Assembly: GCA_947503525.1 (NCBI GenBank)
Contig: CANNEA010000004.1
Location: forward strand, 186,001 to 250,000
DNA from: an uncultured Carboxylicivirga sp.
GTDB taxonomy: Bacteria > Bacteroidota > Bacteroidia > Bacteroidales > Marinilabiliaceae
Reading direction: 5' to 3'
Length of the DNA: 64,000 nucleotides
The translations under genes were made by a program, and so were the position numbers. The notes under the pieces are model-generated. The model was given only the letters and a program-made list of their open reading frames with translations, had not been told where the DNA came from and made no database searches. Shown one piece after another: positions 2,320 to 11,650 of this stretch (the first letter of the stretch is position 1; the number at the start of each line of letters is the position of its first letter).

Positions 2320-3369
2320 TTAAATCTCTTTCAGCAATATTATATATACCGGGAAGTGATCGCTATAACCACCTCTATAACTTGTTCGGCTAACATAAGT
2401 GCGATAAGGATAACCTTTATAGCGTCCATCAGGCACTAAAAGTTTCTTTTTATTATAAATATGTGCCGATTTAAAAGTATATGTTTTCTTGTCCTTCGAC
2501 ACCAGACTTGGAGTCACAATTATCTGATCAAATAAGTTCCATTTATCTCTGTATGCCAAAGTACCAATGCCATTTTTATAGTGTGAATACATGGTGTTAT
2601 AAAGATCACCCTTTTTCATTTTATTAACCTTACCCACCGCGCTCAAATGCATAGCTACACTTTCATTAATAGGATCATCATTTAAATCTCCCATTAATAT
2701 TACCTTCGCTTTTTTATCAATCGTCTGTATTGAATCAATTATAGAACGACTAAGTTTTGCCGCTTCGTTTCGCAAATGGCGGCTTCGAGCCTCGCCCCCA
2801 TATCTCGATGGCCAGTGATTCACAATAAAATGCATCGGCTCTCCATCGAAAATTCCGGAAACCATTAGCTGATCTCTGGTATATAAACGATCATCCGACT
2901 CGTCCTTATAAATTATTAAAGGATATGATTTACTGTTTGTAACCTGAAAATAGCGAGGTTGATAAATTAAACATACATCTATCCCTCTTTCATCAGGTGA
3001 ATCATAATGAACGATCTGATAGTTGAATGGTTTAAGTTTGGGATCATTAATTAAATCTTCAATAACCGCTTTGTTTTCCAACTCACACAATCCAACAACT
3101 GCCGGAGCACCTATTCCCTCATCTACACCAATATCAGAAATAACATCTGCCATTTTGCTGATTTTATCCCAATACCTTTCTCCTGTCCATTTATTACTCC
3201 CATCAGGTGTAAATTCCGTATCTCTTACATCTGGTGTGTCAATCGTATCAAATAAATTTTCCAGATTATAGAAAGCTACAATTCCAGCCTTGTAAGTTTG
3301 TCCAGTGGCTGTAAAACTGCCAAATGCAACAACACTAAGCAGTATAAGAATAAATCGTCTATTTAACAT
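2320..3369 (-). CDS. Secreted endonuclease/exonuclease/phosphatase (EEP) family nuclease
   Basis: A 349-residue protein with a cleavable signal peptide (MLNRRFILILLSVVAFG, Gln-Thr after the likely cleavage site) followed by a full EEP (DNase I-like) domain. Family catalytic motifs are present in order: GLCELENK (metal-binding Glu), IVNHWPSRYGG (catalytic His), ILMGDLNDDP (Asp/Asn pair) and the terminal SDHFPVY (Asp-His). The protein is therefore probably an active, secreted or periplasmic Mg-dependent nuclease or phosphodiesterase; substrate cannot be read from sequence. It faces away from the TonB receptor gene across a 248-base divergent region and lies near another secreted nuclease at 8834, which argues for a role in breaking down external nucleic acid. 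Confidence 0.88.
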   Translation of the reverse strand: MLNRRFILILLSVVAFGSFTATGQTYKAGIVAFYNLENLFDTIDTPDVRDTEFTPDGSNKWTGERYWDKISKMADVISDIGVDEGIGAPAVVGLCELENKAVIEDLINDPKLKPFNYQIVHYDSPDERGIDVCLIYQPRYFQVTNSKSYPLIIYKDESDDRLYTRDQLMVSGIFDGEPMHFIVNHWPSRYGGEARSRHLRNEAAKLSRSIIDSIQTIDKKAKVILMGDLNDDPINESVAMHLSAVGKVNKMKKGDLYNTMYSHYKNGIGTLAYRDKWNLFDQIIVTPSLVSKDKKTYTFKSAHIYNKKKLLVPDGRYKGYPYRTYVSRTSYRGGYSDHFPVYIILLKEI

Positions 3370-3516
3370 ACTATCATGTATTTTTCGTGAGCAAGTTAAT
3401 ATTTTTTAAAGAATATACCCAAACACATTTGTCAATAACAATATCAAAAGCATATCAAAAGGCACCCAACATTAGTTAAATGTTAATTTCCTCTTAAGTT
3501 CATCAAAAAATTTCAT

Positions 3517-3530
3517 AGACCGTCCGGTCT
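3517..3530. promoter_or_regulatory. Palindromic operator-like site before the TonB receptor gene
   Basis: AGACCG-TC-CGGTCT is a perfect 6+6 inverted repeat with a 2-base centre, about 88 bases before the TonB receptor start and within the region divergent to the EEP nuclease. Its form resembles operators of TetR-family repressors, but no such regulator is encoded nearby. The assignment is inference from symmetry and position. Confidence 0.4.
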
Positions 3531-3617
3531 GTATAAATATTTTCCTAAATTGCATCCAATGTATTTAATCCGTAAATTAAGTACTCGTTAAAAAACCAAT
3601 AATCTAAAAAATCATCT

Positions 3618-6317
3618 ATGTTAGCTAAATTCTCATGGCTACTTGGCTTGTTACTTCTGGTAGTAACAGCTTCTGCCCAAGAAGCAGCCATCTCGGGACT
3701 TATAAAAGATGCCGAATCCAACCAACTTATTGAAGGGGTAAAAGTTGAAGCTTCTGATAAATCAAGCCTAAGCGATAGCAAAGGTTATTTTATTCTTAAG
3801 CTTGACAAAGGCGGAAATTACGAAGTTACCTTTTCAAGAGAGGGGTATCGGAGCCTAACCATGCAAGCTAAAGTCGGAGCAGAAGGAACAACGGATATTG
3901 GCCCCATCTTTCTGGTTAATCTAACAACCGATATTCAGGATGTGCCTACCATTACAATTTCAGATTCTGACAGCGAAAATACCTTAGAATCTCAAACCAT
4001 TCCAGGTTTACTGAGCTCTTCTCGTGATGTTTTTGTCTCGGCTGCGGCTTATACTTTTGGTCCAGCCCGCTATCGCATACGTGGTTACGACTCTGAATTA
4101 CAATCGGTAATGATAAATGGCTTTATCATGAATGAAGTAGAATCAGGTCGTCCTTACTGGTCGAATTGGGGTGGTTTAAATGATGTAATGCGCAATACAG
4201 TTATTACTACTGATGCCGATCCTACCGGAGCCATGTATGAACCGCTTGGCGGTTTGACCAATGTATTAACCACTGCTTCGGAATATCGTCCGGGTGTAAA
4301 ATTAGTTTATTCTAATTCCAACCGCAGTTATCGAAACCGAGCAATGGCTACCTATTCAACCGGCCTTATGGATAATAACTGGGCATTTACAGTTTCAGGT
4401 TCTCGCCGTTGGAGTCAGGAAGGGTATAAAGAAGCCACCTTCTATGATTCAAACAGCTTTTTTGTAGCTGCTGAAAAAGTTTTTAATGAAAAACATCGCC
4501 TTAATTTCACAGCGCTCACCTCAATGTATAGTCGTGGCGTTGGTGGCGGAGCAATGCAAGAGGTATATGATCTGGTAGATGATAATTACTACAACCCATA
4601 TTGGGGTTATCAAAATGGGAACAAACGTAATGCGCGGGTAAGAAGTGGAAACAAACCTATGTTCTCGTTGCAACACATCTGGACACCAACACCATCTACA
4701 AAAGTTCGCAGTACGGTTGGCTACTGGTTTGGAAAGGGTGGCTACACCTCTTTAAACTGGAATAATGCGAAGGATCCACGTCCGGATTATTATCGTTACC
4801 TGCCAAGTTATTATACTAATTCTGAAGATCAGGAACGAATTGCTGAAATGTGGAGAACTGATCCAACTGTTAGGCAAATTGATTGGGATGGCCTATATCG
4901 AGCTAACCGAAACAATGGTTACTTTGAAGTTCCAAATGCAAATGGTGTTGAAGGCAACACCTATAAAGGTATCCGTTCTTTCTATATTGTTGAGGATCGA
5001 AGAAATGATATCTCCCAATTTCAATTCAACTCCAATTTCGAACACGATTTTAACGAAAGTAATTGGGGCCTGAATGGTGGATTAAATGTTGATATCTATA
5101 CTGGTGATGTTTTTAATGTTGTTGATGATTTATTAGGCGGCGAATACTGGCTCGATATCGATCAGTTTGCAGAAAGAGATTTTCCTGACAACGTTGATAT
5201 TATTCAAAACGATTTAAACAATCCAAATCGAATTGTAAAAGAAGGTGATATATATTCTCACCATTATAAGTCGCATGTCAACACCTATAACTTATGGATG
5301 ATGGCCAATTATAATGCCGATAAATACAAAGTGTATTTCGGTGGTAATTATAAATACAATGAATTCTGGAGAGAAGGATTAATGCGCAAGGGACTTTTCC
5401 CTGATAATTCATTTGGAAATTCGGAAAAACAGCAATTTAATACTTTTGGACTTAGAGCCGGAGGAGAATATCGCATAACAGGAAGACATATCCTAAAAGC
5501 CAATGCCAGTTATGGTAAGCAACCTCCATTATTTCGCAATGCCTATGTTTCTCCTCGTACGAGAGATAATTTAATTCCAAACCTAAAAGAAGAAACTCAT
5601 ATTTCGATTGATGGAGGCTACTACTTTAATTCCCCAACATTAACCATGAGAGTCAGTGGGTATTATACCCGACTCAATGATCAGTTAAAGAACATGAACT
5701 TTTATCATGAAGAATTGAGATCATTTGTAAACTATTCACAGTCTAATATTGACAAGCAATACATGGGACTTGAATTTGGTGCTGAATATAAAATCACTTC
5801 TACATTAAGTGCTAATCTGGTGGCCTCAGTGGGTGAATATACTTATCAATCAAACCCTGATGTAACCGTAACACAAGATAACAACAGAGAACTGCTTGAA
5901 ACCGGAAAGGTGTATTCGCAAGGTTTTAAAATCAGTGGCACACCCCAACAGGCTTTTGCGATAGGTTTAAAATATAATTCACCAAAATACTGGTGGGCAG
6001 GTGTGACCGCATCTTATTTTGATCAGATATTCATGGATTTTAACCCTATCCCAAGAACAAGTGATCAATACTGGACTCTACCCGAACAGTTGGATGCTGC
6101 TTATACCATTGACGCTTTTGCAGGTAAAAGCTGGCGTTTAGACGATTTCTTTATTTCACTTAGTGCCAACTTAAGTAACGTAACCAATAACCAAAGTTTT
6201 ATTACTGGTGGATACGAACAATTACGCTTCAACTCTGAACGTCCTGAATTATTCGATTCGAAGTACTACTACTACTATGGCTTTAATTATTTTATCAACC
6301 TAAGTGTTAGCTTCTAA
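3618..6317 (+). CDS. TonB-dependent receptor with CarboxypepD_reg-like N-terminal domain
   Basis: An 899-residue outer-membrane transporter. A signal peptide (to about residue 20, ending SAQ) leads into a carboxypeptidase-like regulatory domain (about 22-105), a plug domain (about 125-230, including RIRGYDSELQSVMING) and a long 22-strand-type barrel ending in aromatic Phe (NLSVSF). It imports a substrate using TonB energy. There is no SusD gene after it; instead come a DUF5689 lipoprotein, a double choice-of-anchor J lipoprotein and a secreted endonuclease, so nucleic-acid fragments, nucleotides or phosphate are better guesses than glycans. Stop codon and the next gene's ATG are 10 bases apart, so they are co-transcribed. 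Confidence 0.92.
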   Translation: MLAKFSWLLGLLLLVVTASAQEAAISGLIKDAESNQLIEGVKVEASDKSSLSDSKGYFILKLDKGGNYEVTFSREGYRSLTMQAKVGAEGTTDIGPIFLVNLTTDIQDVPTITISDSDSENTLESQTIPGLLSSSRDVFVSAAAYTFGPARYRIRGYDSELQSVMINGFIMNEVESGRPYWSNWGGLNDVMRNTVITTDADPTGAMYEPLGGLTNVLTTASEYRPGVKLVYSNSNRSYRNRAMATYSTGLMDNNWAFTVSGSRRWSQEGYKEATFYDSNSFFVAAEKVFNEKHRLNFTALTSMYSRGVGGGAMQEVYDLVDDNYYNPYWGYQNGNKRNARVRSGNKPMFSLQHIWTPTPSTKVRSTVGYWFGKGGYTSLNWNNAKDPRPDYYRYLPSYYTNSEDQERIAEMWRTDPTVRQIDWDGLYRANRNNGYFEVPNANGVEGNTYKGIRSFYIVEDRRNDISQFQFNSNFEHDFNESNWGLNGGLNVDIYTGDVFNVVDDLLGGEYWLDIDQFAERDFPDNVDIIQNDLNNPNRIVKEGDIYSHHYKSHVNTYNLWMMANYNADKYKVYFGGNYKYNEFWREGLMRKGLFPDNSFGNSEKQQFNTFGLRAGGEYRITGRHILKANASYGKQPPLFRNAYVSPRTRDNLIPNLKEETHISIDGGYYFNSPTLTMRVSGYYTRLNDQLKNMNFYHEELRSFVNYSQSNIDKQYMGLEFGAEYKITSTLSANLVASVGEYTYQSNPDVTVTQDNNRELLETGKVYSQGFKISGTPQQAFAIGLKYNSPKYWWAGVTASYFDQIFMDFNPIPRTSDQYWTLPEQLDAAYTIDAFAGKSWRLDDFFISLSANLSNVTNNQSFITGGYEQLRFNSERPELFDSKYYYYYGFNYFINLSVSF

Positions 6318-6327
6318 GATAAATATC

Positions 6328-7164
6328 ATGAAAAGAACAAAACTTAATATATTATCCTTAATTCTTTTTTTAACAATAGCGTTTTCATCTTGTGTTACCA
6401 ATAACGAAGATGCTCCTCCTCTTGAGCCGTTTGTAGCTTTTGAAAAGGCAAGCATAACAGATGTCAAAGAGCTGTATGCGGATCAATTAAATGAACATTG
6501 GACCAATAGAGAACCTGTTGAAATCAGATATGAATGGAGTATTAAAGGAATTATAATAGCCGATGATAAAACCTCAAATGGTAATTTTTACAAAGAAGCC
6601 TACGTTCAAGATGAAAGTGGAGGTATACGAGTTACTTTTCTTTCAACTGGAGGTTTGTATGTCAATGACTCTGTAATAATTAATCTTCAGGGATTATACC
6701 TTAGCGATTATGGTGATTTTATCCAACTTGGTGGAGATCCTTATTTTGATGACAGCAATAATTACAGATTAACCGGAATTGACAAACACAAATATTTAAA
6801 ACGAACAGTAATTGAAGGTCAGAAACAGCTTCCAACTGAACTAACTATCGACGAATTGAGTGAGGAGCATATGGGCACACTGATTAAACTTAAAGACGTA
6901 CAGTTCGCCAATTTTGAATTAGGCAAAACATTTGCCACACCTGAAGAAGGTGATACTGAGGCTCGCTCCGAAAACAGAGAGTTAGAAGACTGCAATGGTA
7001 ATGATATCATTGTAAGATCAAGTGGTTATTCAACCTTTGCAGGCACGATACTGCCTGAAGGTAAAGGCTCCTTTGTGGGAGTTTTAACTAAATTTAATTC
7101 AGATTATCAAATCCAAATCAGGCATTTTGATGAAGTTAATCTGGAAGGACCAAGATGTAATTAA
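6328..7164 (+). CDS. DUF5689 domain lipoprotein (OB-fold-like)
   Basis: A surface or periplasmic lipoprotein of 278 residues from the ATG at 6328; an upstream in-frame GTG (6304) overlaps the receptor gene and would put eight residues before the signal peptide, so the ATG is preferred. The lipobox is AFSSC. Residues about 35-270 match DUF5689, with the recurrent IKGIIIADDKTSNGNFYKEAYVQDE... core followed by VNDSVIINLQG; this family is thought to be built on OB-like folds, a fold often used to bind nucleic acid. It sits directly after the TonB receptor and may serve as its substrate-binding partner in place of SusD. Function is inferred from context. Confidence 0.8.
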   Translation: MKRTKLNILSLILFLTIAFSSCVTNNEDAPPLEPFVAFEKASITDVKELYADQLNEHWTNREPVEIRYEWSIKGIIIADDKTSNGNFYKEAYVQDESGGIRVTFLSTGGLYVNDSVIINLQGLYLSDYGDFIQLGGDPYFDDSNNYRLTGIDKHKYLKRTVIEGQKQLPTELTIDELSEEHMGTLIKLKDVQFANFELGKTFATPEEGDTEARSENRELEDCNGNDIIVRSSGYSTFAGTILPEGKGSFVGVLTKFNSDYQIQIRHFDEVNLEGPRCN

Positions 7165-7201
7165 AAACTAATACCAACACAAACAAATTAATTTTAATCT
7201 T

Positions 7202-8764
7202 ATGAAATCATTCTTGAAGTATTGCTCTTTTTTTATGATGACAGCCTTGATTTTATCAAGCTGTAGTGAAGATCCGGCAGCTCCAGCACCACCGGAGGAA
7301 AAGGATCCTGTTGAAGTATGTGGAATTACAGCGAATCCTGTTGCTGAATTTGAAGATGACTTTAGTTCAGCGGTAGATTACGAAGACTATGAAAAAAATG
7401 GTTGGATGAATGTAATCGTTTCTGGTGAGCGTAAATGGCAAGGTAAAGATTTTGCTGGCAATAAATATTTACAAGCATCAGCTCACAAAGCTGCGGAAGG
7501 CAGTCACGAATCATGGTTGATTAGTCCTCCTCTTGACATTGACAATGCTACTAAGAAAGTTGTTAGTTTTAAAACAGCAAAGGCTTATTGGAAGAGTAGC
7601 TCAATGTTTGAAGTATACGTGCTTAAATGCGAAAATGACAAAACTGTTCGATACAAGATAACGCCAACTATTGCTAAGGAAGGAGATGATGATCATGATT
7701 GGATTGAATCCGGCGAGTTTGATCTTTCATCATATAGCGGAACTATACATATTGCCTTTAAATATTTAGGTGAAGGTGGTGAAAGCAATTCTACTACTTG
7801 GAGAATTGATGATTTCGTATTTGGTAAAGAACCTACTAATGGTGGTGGAAATGAATCGGGAACAGGAACAAAAGATGATCCTTACAATCCAGCTTATGTT
7901 ATTAATGCAGCTGATGATGGTTCAATTACTGGATGGGTTAAAGGCTACATTATAGGAACCATCCCTAGTACTGGTGAAGCTACTTTAACAGGTCCATTTG
8001 ATGTTCATACGAATATGTTAATTGCTGAATCAGCTGACGAAACTGATGTTACTAAAATGGTTTCTGTTCAGTTGCCTAGTGGCGCAATCAGAGATGCTCT
8101 AAACCTAAAGGATAATTCAGGCAACCATAAAAAAGAAGTTCTTGTATATGGAGCTTTGGAGTACTATTATGGCTTTAAAGGTGTAAAAGCACTTACTGGC
8201 TACTGGATAGATGGAGATGGCATAGAGCCTGGACCAGGTGATATGGAAAAACCAGCGAATAGTTTCTTTTTTGAAAACTTTGCTTCTGTTGTTGATTACG
8301 ATGACATAGCTATACAAGGTTGGAATAATGTAGCAGAAACAGGAACTAGAAAATGGATAGGCAAAGTCAATTCAGGCAACCATTATGCGCAATTTTCAGC
8401 CTACAATTCTGCTGAATCAAATAATGTTTCGTGGCTAGTTACACCAGCGATTGACCTTACTGGCAAAACTGCTCCAAAGTTATCTTTCGAAACCACAATA
8501 GGATACGATAATGGTGCTACTCTCCAAGTCTTTATATCTACCGATTACACTAATGATGTAGCAACTGCCACCTGGACAGAATTAAGTCCAACGCTTGCAA
8601 GTAAACCGGAAACGGGCAACTATTCTGATTGGGTAAAATCAGGTGACATTGATTTATCATCATACAGCGGAAGCATTTATGTAGCTTTTAAGTATGTAGG
8701 AGGAGATACTGGAACAAGTAAAACAACTACTTGGCAAGTTGATAATTTCAATTGCTTTGAATAA
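7202..8764 (+). CDS. Lipoprotein with two choice-of-anchor J domains around a DUF6359-like domain
   Basis: A 520-residue lipoprotein (lipobox ILSSC). Two paralogous choice-of-anchor J (jelly-roll, MAM-like) units lie at about residues 48-210 and 350-520; they share the pattern D/NF.S.VDY.D...GW.NV...G.RKW.G, then SWL(I/V).P.(L/I)D and the ending DLSSYSG.(I)(H/Y)(I/V)AFKY...TTW..D(D/N)F. Between them, about 222-340, is a DUF6359/OB-like unit (GSITGWVKGYIIG). The architecture suggests a surface-exposed binding protein. It follows the DUF5689 gene by 37 bases and is closed by a strong terminator. Substrate is unknown; nucleic acid is inferred from neighbours. Confidence 0.8.
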   Translation: MKSFLKYCSFFMMTALILSSCSEDPAAPAPPEEKDPVEVCGITANPVAEFEDDFSSAVDYEDYEKNGWMNVIVSGERKWQGKDFAGNKYLQASAHKAAEGSHESWLISPPLDIDNATKKVVSFKTAKAYWKSSSMFEVYVLKCENDKTVRYKITPTIAKEGDDDHDWIESGEFDLSSYSGTIHIAFKYLGEGGESNSTTWRIDDFVFGKEPTNGGGNESGTGTKDDPYNPAYVINAADDGSITGWVKGYIIGTIPSTGEATLTGPFDVHTNMLIAESADETDVTKMVSVQLPSGAIRDALNLKDNSGNHKKEVLVYGALEYYYGFKGVKALTGYWIDGDGIEPGPGDMEKPANSFFFENFASVVDYDDIAIQGWNNVAETGTRKWIGKVNSGNHYAQFSAYNSAESNNVSWLVTPAIDLTGKTAPKLSFETTIGYDNGATLQVFISTDYTNDVATATWTELSPTLASKPETGNYSDWVKSGDIDLSSYSGSIYVAFKYVGGDTGTSKTTTWQVDNFNCFE

Positions 8765-8785
8765 AACTCTATTAATTTGAAATTT

Positions 8786-8809
8786 AAGGCTACCCTTGGG
8801 GGTAGCCTT
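8786..8809 (+). terminator. Rho-independent terminator after the anchor-J lipoprotein gene
   Basis: A 10-base perfect stem (AAGGCTACCC with GGGTAGCCTT) and a 4-base loop, followed by a T-run on the plus strand. It ends the TonB receptor operon before the endonuclease I gene, which starts 25 bases later and could still receive read-through. Confidence 0.9.
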
Positions 8810-8833
8810 TTTACTCTGTTAATACTCATATAA

Positions 8834-9733
8834 ATGAAACATTTAATTTGCTTTCTTGCTTTAAGCTCCTTGCTCTATTCATGCACCAAGTCAGAAGATC
8901 CGATTAATGAACCGCCAAAAACTAACCCTGATAAAGAGAATTATTTAGTGGCTGAAGTAGACAATGAAGGCAAAATTATTGTTCGTCACAGCCCAAAAGA
9001 TTATGTTTTAAACGTTGATAAAGGTCAACACACCTTATCGGTTCGAATACCTGATAACTACTACTCCTCTGCCTCATCCTTAAGTGGGACCGAATTAAAA
9101 GCAACACTGAAAACTATCATTACAACTGGGGCAAAACAACTACAATACACCAGTAGCACAAGTTCAGACGTTTGGGATATGTGTGAGGCTGGTGATGAAA
9201 ACCCATCTAACAGTAACGAAGTTTGGTTGATTTATACTGAAAAAAGCATGGCTAAAACCTACCATAGCAGTGGATCAGATGGCTGGAATCGTGAACACGT
9301 TTGGGCTAAATCACATGGTGATCTAGGCACTAGTCCCGGGCCAGGAACGGATGGTCATCATTTAAGAGCCTCAGATGCTCAGGAAAATGGTAAGCGTGGA
9401 AACCTTGATTTTGATGATGTGAATGGACCCCGAACAAAAAACAGTACATATTACGAACCTCCTTTAAGTGCCAAAGGCGATGTGGCACGCTCTATCTTTT
9501 ATATGGCTTTACGCTATGGATATATGGTTGACAATGGTTCCGGAAGCGGTGCGCGACATGGTAAACTGGAAACGCTACTAAAATGGAACGAGCTCGATCC
9601 TGTTGATCCCTATGAAATAAGGCGAAATAATGTGATCTTCCAATTTCAGAATAATCGCAATCCCTTTATCGATCATCCTGAATTGGTCAAATACATTTAT
9701 GGTTATAAGCAAGACAATGAATGGATTGAATAA
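8834..9733 (+). CDS. Endonuclease I family (EndA/NucM-like) lipoprotein
   Basis: A 299-residue exported nuclease. The lipobox is SLLYSC (Cys17). Residues about 95-285 form an Endonuclease_1 (PF04231) domain with the beta-beta-alpha metal motif WNREHVWAKSHGD (catalytic His155) and the following TDGHHLRASDAQENGKRGN segment. Relatives cut DNA and RNA non-specifically outside the cytoplasm and serve in nutrient acquisition. As a lipoprotein it would stay on the cell surface next to the TonB receptor. A terminator separates it from the lipoprotein genes upstream, but the shared direction, 69-base spacing and predicted function make it part of the same locus. Confidence 0.9.
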   Translation: MKHLICFLALSSLLYSCTKSEDPINEPPKTNPDKENYLVAEVDNEGKIIVRHSPKDYVLNVDKGQHTLSVRIPDNYYSSASSLSGTELKATLKTIITTGAKQLQYTSSTSSDVWDMCEAGDENPSNSNEVWLIYTEKSMAKTYHSSGSDGWNREHVWAKSHGDLGTSPGPGTDGHHLRASDAQENGKRGNLDFDDVNGPRTKNSTYYEPPLSAKGDVARSIFYMALRYGYMVDNGSGSGARHGKLETLLKWNELDPVDPYEIRRNNVIFQFQNNRNPFIDHPELVKYIYGYKQDNEWIE

Positions 9734-9778: not shown

Positions 9779-11650
9779 CTACTCAACAAGCAGGACCTTA
9801 TTTTTAGGGTATTTTACTGAATACATCAATTCAAGCTCAACTTGTTCTGCTGAGGTCAATTGAAGACTCCAGATAACTTCACCATTTTCTTTATTAAGTT
9901 CACCTTTGCTCAATTCATCAACTTTAACCTCTATCTCTTCCATTAATGAAACCGGCACCTGGTCGAAGAGCTTTAAACTTATCGATTGTTGCTTATTATT
10001 CCGAATTACCGTTTTCCATGCTCTGCTAACTTCTTTTTTCCCGCCAACAAATTGTTTAGTACTATGATCTTTAATTTTCTCACGCCTAACCATTACTTGC
10101 TTATCTCGCCCAAGAGACAACTCCAAGGTATCACTTTGGTTTGTCACATTAAGTATTGATTTCCCAATGTAAGTATCCTCGAAAAAGATATTAGCTTCAC
10201 CTTCTAACAAATTATACTTCTGCCAATCGGTAATTTGAGCCATTAAAAAGGCATCTTGATCTACCTTAGGAATACTGTAATATTCATAGTTTGAAGGCAT
10301 TTCATAGGCGATCATATCAACAACATAACTTTCATTGTTACTTTTTATGCTGTAAGGTGTTTCAATCTGAAATTCAACTCTTGTCTGATGATGAATACTC
10401 TCTATTGGAATAGATAAACTACTACCTCCTTGTATTTTAAGCTTATCTTTCTTCATACGACTTTTACTCCTATTTACAACTGATTCCTTGTTTGAACTAC
10501 CATAGCCAACAAGAACCACCTCATCCAAAGCAACAGTATTAGCTTCAAGCCTAACATTCATTTGTTTACCACTTATTGACAAAGCTTTCCTATTCATTCC
10601 AATAAAAGAATAGACAAGAACAGAATGATTATCGGGCACAGTCAGCGAATAGTATCCTGACGCATCTGTTACCGTTCCAATGGTAGTACCTTTCACTACA
10701 ACATTACAGCCAGGCAAGGGCAAATTTGATTCATCCGTCACCCTACCTACAACCTGATTAATTGATGATGAATAATTTGGAGCTAACATTCCATACGCCA
10801 ATTGATACTTTTTAAGTACCGGTGCTACTCCTCCAGCATTTGGATCAGACGAAGAGAAAGTTAACTTCACATCTTTCCATTCTACAAGCGTGTTCTGATA
10901 CACATTTGCCTTATAGATAAGTTGAATGGGTTGGTCAATGCTTTTAGCCCTGATATCGTAAGTAGGAAACCAACCAGCATTACTTACCAGATATGAAACT
11001 TCAAAACTTGCAGTAACAGCCTTCTTGGCCCTAACCTTAACAAAAACCTCTCCTGTTGGATCTTTTTTAATACCAGATAAATTATTAATCTGCATTTGTA
11101 AGGCATTCCGCTCAGCATTTAAGGATTGAATAGTTCTGTTGCGCTTTATATCGTCCAATTTTAATTCTGTCAAACGCTTTCCATAATACTCGCTTGCTTG
11201 CTGAAGATGAGTAATATCAATATTCGAATCTTCACCTCTAACGTTTCTGTTTTCCCTTAGAAATTCTAATTCTTCTTTTATAATGGATTGATAAGCAGAT
11301 TCAACCTCAAGTTTATTATCAATAGTTTTAATTTGCTGCCTGATGGTAAGAACCTCATCTGTATTACTTACATGGGAATGAAAGTTTTTTTGATGGCTTA
11401 TGGATACTACCATAATATCACCTTTTGATTTAACCTGAATACTTTTAGCATCAATATAGGGAGATAAGTTGCTAAACTTTAAAATAGTTGTTCCTGCACC
11501 AACAGCAACGGTCTTATTTCGCATAACATGCGCGCCTTGCAGAAAAACGGTTACCTCCTTTACCTTAGAATCTATTTCTTTTTCAGAAACTGTTGTTGCA
11601 AATACAGACGAAATAATTAAGCAAAAAACCAGTGTGTGAAGAATTTTCAT
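9779..11650 (-). CDS. DUF4139 (MuiA-like) protein with inserted CarboxypepD_reg domain
   Basis: A 623-residue exported protein with a signal peptide (to about residue 18). The N-terminal DUF4140 domain (about 28-125) and coiled-coil segment are followed by the DUF4139 domain (about 200-620), the arrangement of mucoidy-inhibitor MuiA-like proteins of unknown function. DUF4139 is interrupted at about residues 299-385 by a carboxypeptidase-like regulatory domain (GRVTDESNLPLPGCNVVVKG, GYYSLTVP) that runs into VALDEVVLVGYGSS, the linker that normally opens the plug of SusC-type TonB receptors. The insert looks like a domain captured from a TonB receptor. Single gene, no operon partners. A cell-envelope role is inferred. 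Confidence 0.85.
   Translation of the reverse strand: MKILHTLVFCLIISSVFATTVSEKEIDSKVKEVTVFLQGAHVMRNKTVAVGAGTTILKFSNLSPYIDAKSIQVKSKGDIMVVSISHQKNFHSHVSNTDEVLTIRQQIKTIDNKLEVESAYQSIIKEELEFLRENRNVRGEDSNIDITHLQQASEYYGKRLTELKLDDIKRNRTIQSLNAERNALQMQINNLSGIKKDPTGEVFVKVRAKKAVTASFEVSYLVSNAGWFPTYDIRAKSIDQPIQLIYKANVYQNTLVEWKDVKLTFSSSDPNAGGVAPVLKKYQLAYGMLAPNYSSSINQVVGRVTDESNLPLPGCNVVVKGTTIGTVTDASGYYSLTVPDNHSVLVYSFIGMNRKALSISGKQMNVRLEANTVALDEVVLVGYGSSNKESVVNRSKSRMKKDKLKIQGGSSLSIPIESIHHQTRVEFQIETPYSIKSNNESYVVDMIAYEMPSNYEYYSIPKVDQDAFLMAQITDWQKYNLLEGEANIFFEDTYIGKSILNVTNQSDTLELSLGRDKQVMVRREKIKDHSTKQFVGGKKEVSRAWKTVIRNNKQQSISLKLFDQVPVSLMEEIEVKVDELSKGELNKENGEVIWSLQLTSAEQVELELMYSVKYPKNKVLLVE

What the first reader, a model, noticed from the sequence alone, without database searches (positions are those of the whole stretch)
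2320..9733. Possible extracellular DNA/RNA scavenging locus built around a TonB receptor and OB-fold-like lipoproteins
Seen: a secreted EEP nuclease, a TonB receptor without SusD, a DUF5689 lipoprotein, a lipoprotein with two anchor-J units around a DUF6359-like domain, and a secreted endonuclease I lipoprotein, all adjacent. Known: EEP and endonuclease I families cut nucleic acids; OB folds commonly bind them. Inference: surface capture, cutting and TonB-driven import of nucleic-acid fragments, with OB-like lipoproteins replacing SusD. This would be a nucleic-acid counterpart of a glycan utilization locus.
Basis: partly seen in the sequence, partly recalled or inferred. Interest (0 to 1): 0.7.

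Follow-up and report, generated by a model that had tools for sequence, protein, structure and literature searches.

The report
Bacteroidota outer-membrane DNA-uptake gene cluster
These neighbouring genes are relatives of a pair that another bacterium needs to take up DNA from its surroundings and be genetically transformed, so they probably form a DNA-import gate in the outer membrane rather than a system for eating DNA.

Summary
The five genes are as described, and their clustering is not chance. The interpretation needs changing. The receptor is a full-length relative (30% identity, same supported clade) of the Riemerella anatipestifer gene RA0C_RS04915. The DUF5689 and anchor-J lipoproteins match the two halves of its operon partner RA0C_RS04920. 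Published clean deletions of either gene abolish natural transformation. The Riemerella locus has the same divergent EEP nuclease gene beside the receptor, and comEC about 4 kb away. In named Bacteroidota loci the core is EEP nuclease (59 of 73), receptor, DUF5689 lipoprotein (79 of 79). Endonuclease I (9 of 80) and DUF6359 (12 of 80) are optional. Models give a TonB-dependent-transporter fold and, for a related lipoprotein, probable OB-like domains plus an anchor-J jelly roll that resembles carbohydrate-binding and adhesin modules. This genome has ComEC about 16 kb away and no type IV pilus/T2SS ATPase above the family cut-off. Best reading: the outer-membrane DNA-uptake machine of natural transformation, with the EEP nuclease a candidate for the unidentified strand-processing enzyme. 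Nutrient scavenging is a weaker rival. No experiment in this organism supports either, and DNA passage through the barrel is inferred.

The parts
2320..3369 (-). Secreted EEP-family nuclease (Exo_endo_phos_3), divergent from the receptor gene; counterpart of the gene next to the receptor in R. anatipestifer (RA0C_RS04910 by tag order, inferred)
   Evidence: Pfam PF19580 426 bits; 41% identity to the Riemerella copy in L146; E37, E96, H185, D228, N230 invariant in 82 of 82 aligned sequences, D337 and H338 in 81 of 82, one gap
3370..3617 (.). Divergent intergenic region; holds a perfect 14-base inverted repeat at 3517-3530 (possible operator, not found in the other loci held)
3618..6317 (+). TonB-dependent-transporter-like outer-membrane receptor, 899 aa; relative of RA0C_RS04915
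   Evidence: model pLDDT 87.7; the 50 PDB matches listed are all TBDTs; 30% over the full length to Riemerella, 428 bits; best hit of the Riemerella receptor in this genome; same side of the tree, support 100
3690..3896 (+). N-terminal carboxypeptidase-regulatory-like domain of the receptor (residues 25-93)
   Evidence: PF13620
3927..4025 (+). Low-confidence segment (residues 104-136) before the plug with a recurring acidic/hydrophobic motif; candidate TonB-contact region (inferred)
   Evidence: pLDDT under 50 at 104-136; motif in the alignment
6328..7164 (+). DUF5689 lipoprotein, probably OB-like; matches the N-terminal half of RA0C_RS04920 / NF052645
   Evidence: PF18942 186 bits; NF052645 profile 7-280 of 457; 27% to Riemerella residues 1-286, E 1e-15
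7202..8764 (+). Lipoprotein: anchor J, DUF6359, anchor J; anchor J matches the C-terminal half of RA0C_RS04920
   Evidence: PF19886, NF038128 twice and NF052645 profile 286-455; 34% to Riemerella residues 309-464 and 28% to 305-466
8786..8809 (+). Terminator-like hairpin with T run, between the uptake operon and the endonuclease gene
   Evidence: 6 such sites in the region, 5.5 expected from shuffles, so weak on its own
8834..9733 (+). Secreted endonuclease I lipoprotein (optional accessory)
   Evidence: PF04231 124 bits; a PF04231-like gene in 9 of 80 named loci

Best explanation
The locus encodes the outer-membrane stage of natural transformation in this bacterium. Surface lipoproteins with OB-like domains (DUF5689, DUF6359) and anchor-J domains hold DNA at the mouth of a TonB-dependent-transporter barrel. 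TonB energises entry, and a secreted EEP nuclease trims, nicks or degrades one strand. A periplasmic helix-hairpin-helix protein and inner-membrane ComEC take the strand onward. Shown here: gene content, relationship of receptor and lipoproteins to the Riemerella pair, the conserved module, the receptor fold, ComEC presence, no pilus/T2SS ATPase above cut-off. Shown by others in R. anatipestifer: both pair members are essential for transformation. Inferred: DNA passes through the barrel, TonB drives it, the lipoproteins bind DNA, the EEP nuclease acts in uptake, endonuclease I is an accessory.
For: Receptor and lipoproteins are relatives of RA0C_RS04915/RS04920, whose markerless deletions drop transformation from 5.4e-5 to below detection (PMC8459023). 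Riemerella gene order recA, dinB, sdh genes, comEC, a short gap, carboxyltransferase, EEP, receptor, lipoprotein fits the published tags RS04870-RS04920. The Riemerella receptor's best hit in this whole genome is the window receptor, 393 bits against 87 for the next gene; in the other direction the window receptor scores 428 bits with it and 129 with the one Riemerella paralog that one search found. Tree: 40 orthologs including window and Riemerella on one side with support 100, 13 paralog rows on the other. Full-length receptor and strong DUF5689 are in the same 22 of 148 genomes. Named loci: DUF5689 downstream in 79 of 79 evaluable, EEP upstream in 59 of 73, 56 of these divergent. TBDT fold; Teb1/TEBP among fold matches. 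ComEC in all 22 sample carriers, about 16 kb from the receptor in this genome. T2SS/T4P ATPase over 400 bits in only 4 of 23 carriers, not in this genome or Riemerella. tonBA mutant lowers transformation without an iron defect (PMC8383284). In other genomes DUF5689 lies in one frame with Endonuclease_1 or, weakly, EEP matches.
Against: No transformation data for this organism. Identity to Riemerella is only 30% (receptor) and 27-34% (lipoproteins). The nuclease is not among the hits of the published screen nor among the deletions in that paper; it is not adjacent in 14 of 73 evaluable named loci and 7 of 21 sample relatives. Multi-HHH proteins are in 23 of 23 carriers but also in 15 of 15 same-class genomes without the receptor, so they do not discriminate. 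ComEC is within 30 kb in only 3 of 22 sample genomes. F. johnsoniae has the homologues but was not transformable under the tested conditions (PMC8459023, PMC7965970), and the latter paper sees pilus-type uptake homologues in it; 4 of 23 carriers do have a PilB/GspE-type ATPase. No TonB-dependent transporter is known to me to import DNA. The authors read the tonBA effect as nutrient transport.
Confidence: 0.72

Rival explanations
1. Nutrient scavenging: the nucleases digest extracellular DNA/RNA at the surface and the receptor imports oligonucleotides for phosphate, nitrogen or carbon.
For: Two secreted nucleases in the window; endonuclease I in the held stretch of 9 of 80 named loci, by a rough hand estimate ten-fold or more above chance, taking about 1.5 PF04231 matches per carrier genome. 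Bacteroidota degrade sediment DNA (PMC8289736, passages). R. columbina transforms more under phosphate restriction (PMC7965970, heading seen). Some TonB-transporters and nucleases are phosphate-regulated in Flavobacterium (PMC8115612, passages).
Against: The receptor and lipoprotein relatives are essential for gene transfer in Riemerella. No nucleotidase or nucleoside transporter among the seven proteins scanned. The phosphate-induced endonuclease-I genes of F. johnsoniae (EndA1, EndA2) are listed as 'Orphan'. In the 22 sample carriers a PF04231 gene lies near the receptor in 2 only, this genome and G103. Transformation of R. anatipestifer falls without phosphate (PMC8383284, abstract).
Confidence: 0.17
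2. A general surface transporter or envelope component whose loss disturbs the cell surface and blocks transformation indirectly.
For: The gene that names NF052645, M949_1556 of strain CH3, is reported to affect antigenicity and pathogenicity (a reference title and a review passage only), which suggests wider surface effects. The Riemerella lipoprotein exceeds that family's cut-off (599 against 475 bits).
Against: Conserved linkage to a nuclease with invariant catalytic residues, OB-like fold matches, comEC neighbourhood in Riemerella.
Confidence: 0.09
3. A glycan utilization locus with an unusual SusD substitute.
For: Anchor-J domain resembles carbohydrate-binding jelly rolls and gingipain adhesin domains.
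Against: No glycoside hydrolase or SusD among the five genes, no SusC-family (TIGR04056) hit for the receptor, nuclease partner instead; the listed fold hits are small-ligand transporters, with no SusC among the 50 rows shown.
Confidence: 0.02

Closest known systems
RA0C_RS04915-RA0C_RS04920 natural-transformation pair of Riemerella anatipestifer ATCC 11845 (PMC8459023)
   Same: Orthologous receptor, lipoprotein built from DUF5689 plus anchor J, operon order, divergent EEP gene upstream
   Different: Lipoprotein is split into two genes in the window, with an added anchor J and a DUF6359 domain; an endonuclease I gene follows; comEC is about 16 kb away instead of about 4 kb; transformation is untested
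SusCD glycan transporters / polysaccharide utilization loci
   Same: TonB-transporter fold, CarboxypepD_reg N-terminal domain, adjacent lipoproteins
   Different: No SusD, no TIGR04056 match, nuclease instead of glycoside hydrolases
ExeM/NucH and EndA-type extracellular nucleases used for DNA scavenging
   Same: EEP or endonuclease I catalytic families, secreted
   Different: Here the EEP protein is a separate single-domain enzyme tied to a receptor operon; matches to NF033681 and PRK15137 are far below cut-off
Type IV pilus / ComEA / ComEC natural transformation of other Gram-negative bacteria
   Same: Inner part: ComEC and helix-hairpin-helix proteins are present
   Different: Outer part: no pilus/T2SS assembly ATPase above cut-off in this genome or R. 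anatipestifer; a TBDT would replace secretin and pilus

Membership tests
Riemerella-type outer-membrane DNA-uptake pair | Receptor orthologous to RA0C_RS04915 | tested here: met
   Best hit in this genome 393 bits against 87; 428 bits against 129 for the Riemerella paralog; full-length 30% identity; one side of the tree, support 100. The reverse whole-genome search was not run
Riemerella-type outer-membrane DNA-uptake pair | Adjacent downstream lipoprotein with DUF5689 and anchor J | tested here: met
   Met as two genes; NF052645 aligns across both
Riemerella-type outer-membrane DNA-uptake pair | ComEC encoded in the genome | tested here: met
   G000:C4:172295-173092, 198 bits
Riemerella-type outer-membrane DNA-uptake pair | Required for natural transformation | not testable with these tools
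   Only shown for R. anatipestifer (PMC8459023)
Riemerella-type outer-membrane DNA-uptake pair | DprA, ComF, RecA and DUF1343 protein in the genome | not tested
SusCD polysaccharide utilization locus | SusD-family lipoprotein next to SusC | tested here: not met
   No SusD hit in the two lipoproteins
SusCD polysaccharide utilization locus | Receptor matches the SusC/RagA family model | tested here: not met
   No NCBIfam hit for the receptor at E 0.01
Nucleic-acid utilization (scavenging) locus | Secreted nucleases | tested here: met
   PF19580 and PF04231; secretion by eye
Nucleic-acid utilization (scavenging) locus | Nucleotidase, phosphatase or nucleoside transporter in the locus | tested here: not met
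   The five genes and the two flanking genes scanned show none; wider flanks only read by eye
Type IV pilus DNA uptake | PilB/PilT-type assembly ATPase | tested here: not met
   Best PF00437 match in this genome 21.3 bits, under the 24.9 cut-off
TonB-dependent transporter | Plug and large beta-barrel of the TBDT fold | tested here: met
   Model and Foldseek hits over about 740-840 columns, target TM-scores 0.60-0.74, although no Pfam plug/barrel model hits

The most novel reading that the evidence does not exclude
A TonB-dependent transporter is the DNA channel of natural transformation across much of the Bacteroidota: an OB-fold lipoprotein cap feeds a DNA end made by the partner EEP nuclease into the barrel, and TonB force replaces the pilus. 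The EEP enzyme would be the strand-processing nuclease named as unidentified in the Riemerella model.
Probability: 0.4. Interest if true: 0.9.

Novelty: new variant of a known kind. Interest (0 to 1): 0.64.

Why it matters
How Gram-negative bacteria without type IV pili bring DNA across the outer membrane is open. Two genes were found by a screen in one duck pathogen, with a speculative model. The present comparison turns them into a defined, widely conserved module: nuclease, TonB-transporter fold, probable OB-fold lipoprotein. It suggests which Bacteroidota, including environmental and oral members, may be transformable, gives a candidate for the missing nuclease, and makes the question directly testable by single-gene removals and DNA-binding assays.

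Tried and rejected
Helix-hairpin-helix co-occurrence as support: proteins with two or more HHH_3 matches are in all 23 carriers but also in all 15 same-class genomes without the receptor, so it was dropped as evidence. ComEC proximity: within 30 kb in 3 of 22 sample genomes (this one, G107, G053) against roughly 0.3 expected by a hand estimate; kept only as modest support. ComEC presence: all carriers have it, but so do 10 of 14 control genomes. The 14-base inverted repeat at 3517-3530 as a conserved operator: found in no other held locus than the window's own. Surface-export signal: net acidic residues after the cysteine are commoner in DUF5689 proteins (45% of 78 against 27% of 56 other lipobox ORFs), with a crude lipobox rule that misses the window's endonuclease; not used. 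PDB sequence searches: no relative of the DUF5689 or EEP protein, only the N-terminal domain for the receptor. A first motif count with loose patterns gave a misleading number for the first EEP motif and was replaced by alignment columns. Glycan locus: see rivals.

Evaluable means at least 1000 bases upstream or 600 downstream, or the gene found anyway. 'EEP beside' means an end within 1.5 kb upstream (largest gap seen 511). 'DUF5689 downstream' allowed 2.5 kb on the same strand: 75 of 79 named and 18 of 20 sample loci lie within 150 bases, the farthest 2168 bases away behind an anchor-J gene. Anchor J, DUF6359 and endonuclease I were counted anywhere in the held stretch, and many stretches are cut by contig ends. 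In one search at most 6 candidates per genome were scored in many genomes, so absences there are not proof. One row (L049_16900) that the tree script labelled ortholog is a paralog.

Searches compare it with the one Riemerella paralog known. ComEC distance was corrected from 17 to 16 kb.
Full report
OBSERVATION. Gaps of 10 and 37 bases fit one operon for receptor and lipoproteins. A terminator-like hairpin at 8786-8809 lies before the endonuclease gene. Pfam finds only a carboxypeptidase-regulatory domain in the receptor, so the name 'TonB receptor' needed a structural test. Its AlphaFold model (42 sequences, mean pLDDT 87.7, pTM 0.79) has an N-terminal domain at 23-99, a low-confidence stretch at 104-136, a mixed segment from about 138, then a long series of strands. 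Foldseek's 50 listed PDB matches are TonB-dependent transporters, led by PqqU/YncD, Fiu, FecA and FhuA.

LEAD FROM THE LITERATURE. In the held library DUF5689 is named in one paper only: a transposon screen for natural transformation in Riemerella anatipestifer (PMC8459023; I read sections 17, 18 and 21, plus abstract and passages). There RA0C_RS04915 (outer-membrane protein with a carboxypeptidase-regulatory domain) and RA0C_RS04920 (DUF5689 plus DUF5017, annotated choice-of-anchor J) are a predicted operon, and markerless deletion of either puts transformation below detection (wild type 5.4e-5). The authors propose that RS04920 binds DNA and RS04915 carries it across the outer membrane, and that an unidentified protein makes single strands. 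A search for these locus tags found no other paper in the held library; most subscription journals and preprints are not covered.

IS IT THE SAME SYSTEM? In G456 the gene order is recA, dinB, sdh genes, comEC, a short gap, a carboxyltransferase, EEP nuclease, receptor, DUF5689-anchor J lipoprotein, which fits the published tags RS04870, RS04895, RS04915 and RS04920; comEC is about 4 kb from the receptor. The window receptor aligns to the Riemerella receptor end to end at 30% identity (428 bits). The Riemerella receptor's best hit in the window's whole genome is the window receptor (393 bits against 87 for the next gene). The window receptor scores 129 bits with the one Riemerella paralog that one search revealed; it was not searched against that whole genome. 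The window's DUF5689 protein matches Riemerella lipoprotein residues 1-286 (27%, E 1e-15), and its anchor-J domains match residues 305-466 (28% and 34%). NCBIfam NF052645, whose cut-off the Riemerella protein passes (599 against 475 bits), aligns 7-280 to one window protein and 286-455 to the other, below that cut-off. So one fused Riemerella protein corresponds to two window genes. The nucleases match at 41% (the copy in G454). In a 53-row tree (21 sample orthologs, 16 of the 80 named, window, two Riemerella, 13 paralogs) the 40 orthologs are separated from the paralogs with support 100. Window and Riemerella lie in different halves of the ortholog side.

THE MODULE IS CONSERVED. In 148 genomes drawn from the phylum, 41 have a receptor match at E 1e-20 or better. 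Twenty-two of these, this genome included, have a full-length ortholog (best segment 249 bits or more), and matches to other genes score 164 bits or less. Strong DUF5689 hits (over 140 bits) fall in exactly these 22 genomes, within 0.8 kb of the receptor in 21; in G017 it lies on another contig; in G084 and G057 a small anchor-J gene stands between. PF19580 is in all 22 and lies beside the receptor in 15. In four genomes of one genus (g6, unnamed, I take it for Flavobacterium) it lies 16-41 kb away, in G107 about 9 kb, in G017 and G037 elsewhere. In 80 named loci from GTDB genomes, DUF5689 follows the receptor on the same strand in 79 of 79 evaluable loci, within 150 bases in 75. EEP is beside the receptor in 59 of 73 evaluable loci and divergent in 56 of those. 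Anchor J is in 57 of 80, DUF6359 in 12 of 80, endonuclease I in 9 of 80. In the 21 sample relatives the counts are DUF5689 20, EEP 14, anchor J 14, DUF6359 0, endonuclease I 1. Among 10 control loci around paralogous receptors (L032-L041) none has DUF5689, one has EEP and one anchor J. Named carriers include Kordia algicida, Crocinitomix algicola, Flammeovirga sp. OC4 and Porphyromonas sp. oral taxon 278. Locus L132 has the same domain set as the window (EEP, receptor, DUF5689, DUF6359, anchor J, endonuclease I). The EEP catalytic residues are invariant in 82 of 82 aligned sequences, or 81 of 82 for the C-terminal SDH motif, so an active enzyme seems to be maintained.

WHAT THE LIPOPROTEINS LOOK LIKE. 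The window proteins themselves were not modelled. The L132 protein, which carries DUF5689, DUF6359 and anchor J in one chain, was; its model is confident per residue (pLDDT 90.0) but not in domain arrangement (pTM 0.54). Foldseek's best PDB matches are jelly-roll domains (8jiy carbohydrate-binding domain, gingipain K1/K3 adhesin domains, MAM, ephrin-receptor domains), which I attribute to anchor J. OB-fold single-strand DNA-binding proteins also appear: Teb1 AB 3u58 (E 2e-5, target TM-score 0.32) and telomere-end-binding protein 1phj (9e-5, 0.22) (50 of 149 matches under 0.001 are shown). The listing gives no aligned ranges, so assigning these to DUF5689/DUF6359 rests on strand order and is an inference. 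In other genomes DUF5689 and Endonuclease_1 matches lie close together in open frames of the same length (G041, G143, G147), and so do DUF5689 and a weak EEP match (G139), which suggests fusions and ties DUF5689 to nucleic acids.

REST OF THE PATHWAY. This genome has one ComEC, about 16 kb before the receptor, and all 21 sample relatives have ComEC (in G115 the frame holds two stops). The assembly-ATPase family of type IV pili and type II secretion has a strong match in 4 of 23 carriers, and none over the cut-off in this genome or in R. anatipestifer, so pilus-driven uptake is not indicated there. Proteins with several HHH motifs are in all carriers but also in all 15 non-carriers tested. In R. 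anatipestifer, loss of tonBA lowers transformation without an iron defect (PMC8383284, abstract and passages). The authors suggest nutrient transport; a TonB-driven DNA transporter would explain it as well. TonB2 also matters in Acinetobacter transformation, but there its authors think it acts on pili (PMC8811193, passages).

MECHANISM, WITH WHAT IS SHOWN AND INFERRED. Shown by sequence and model: module, receptor fold, intact nuclease motifs. Shown genetically elsewhere: the pair is essential for transformation. Inferred: lipoproteins bind DNA on the surface; the receptor opens under TonB; the EEP nuclease, which by eye has a signal peptide and no lipobox, makes or removes a strand at the surface or in the periplasm; ComEC completes import. 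Endonuclease I, behind a terminator-like hairpin and seldom present, may shorten or recycle DNA, and could serve nutrition.

VERDICT. The nucleic-acid reading is right in kind, but the best-supported function is DNA uptake for transformation, not feeding. The pair is known genetically from one species. The association with the EEP nuclease, the TBDT and OB-like folds and the split lipoprotein I found in no paper of the held library (searches; only the papers named here were opened). The 2021 paper itself says that homologues of the pair are widespread in Bacteroidetes, so distribution alone is not new.

Noticed in passing
window 3517-3530: Perfect 14-base inverted repeat between the divergent nuclease and receptor genes, resembling a TetR-type operator (recalled); not seen in any other held locus.
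   Followed up: partly
window 9779-11650 (-): MuiA-like DUF4139/DUF4140 protein with an inserted carboxypeptidase-regulatory domain and a match to the start of the SusC/RagA model (residues 299-412, TIGR04056, below cut-off), although it does not look like a barrel protein.
   Followed up: no
G115:C1:162198-162944: The comEC reading frame of this receptor-carrying relative holds two TAA stops, so it may have lost transformation while keeping the outer-membrane module.
   Followed up: no
L145:6819-11932 (-): In R. anatipestifer, genes that read like Cas1 and Cas9 (by eye, no family search; the Cas9-like one in two overlapping frames) lie less than 2 kb beyond the DNA-uptake operon.
   Followed up: no
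L134, L136, L141: In these three loci the EEP gene is on the same strand as the receptor and directly upstream, so nuclease and receptor may be co-transcribed.
   Followed up: no
L094:6936-8381, L095:7525-9027: EEP gene lies on the other side of the lipoprotein gene, with a longer open frame of 481-500 aa.
   Followed up: no
L132:12193-14088, L068:3654-5483: Endonuclease I neighbours of the receptor carry a type IX secretion sorting domain.
   Followed up: partly
G064:C22 near 466000, G037:C47 near 70000: A gene with several HHH motifs lies about 1 kb from comEC in these two genomes.
   Followed up: no
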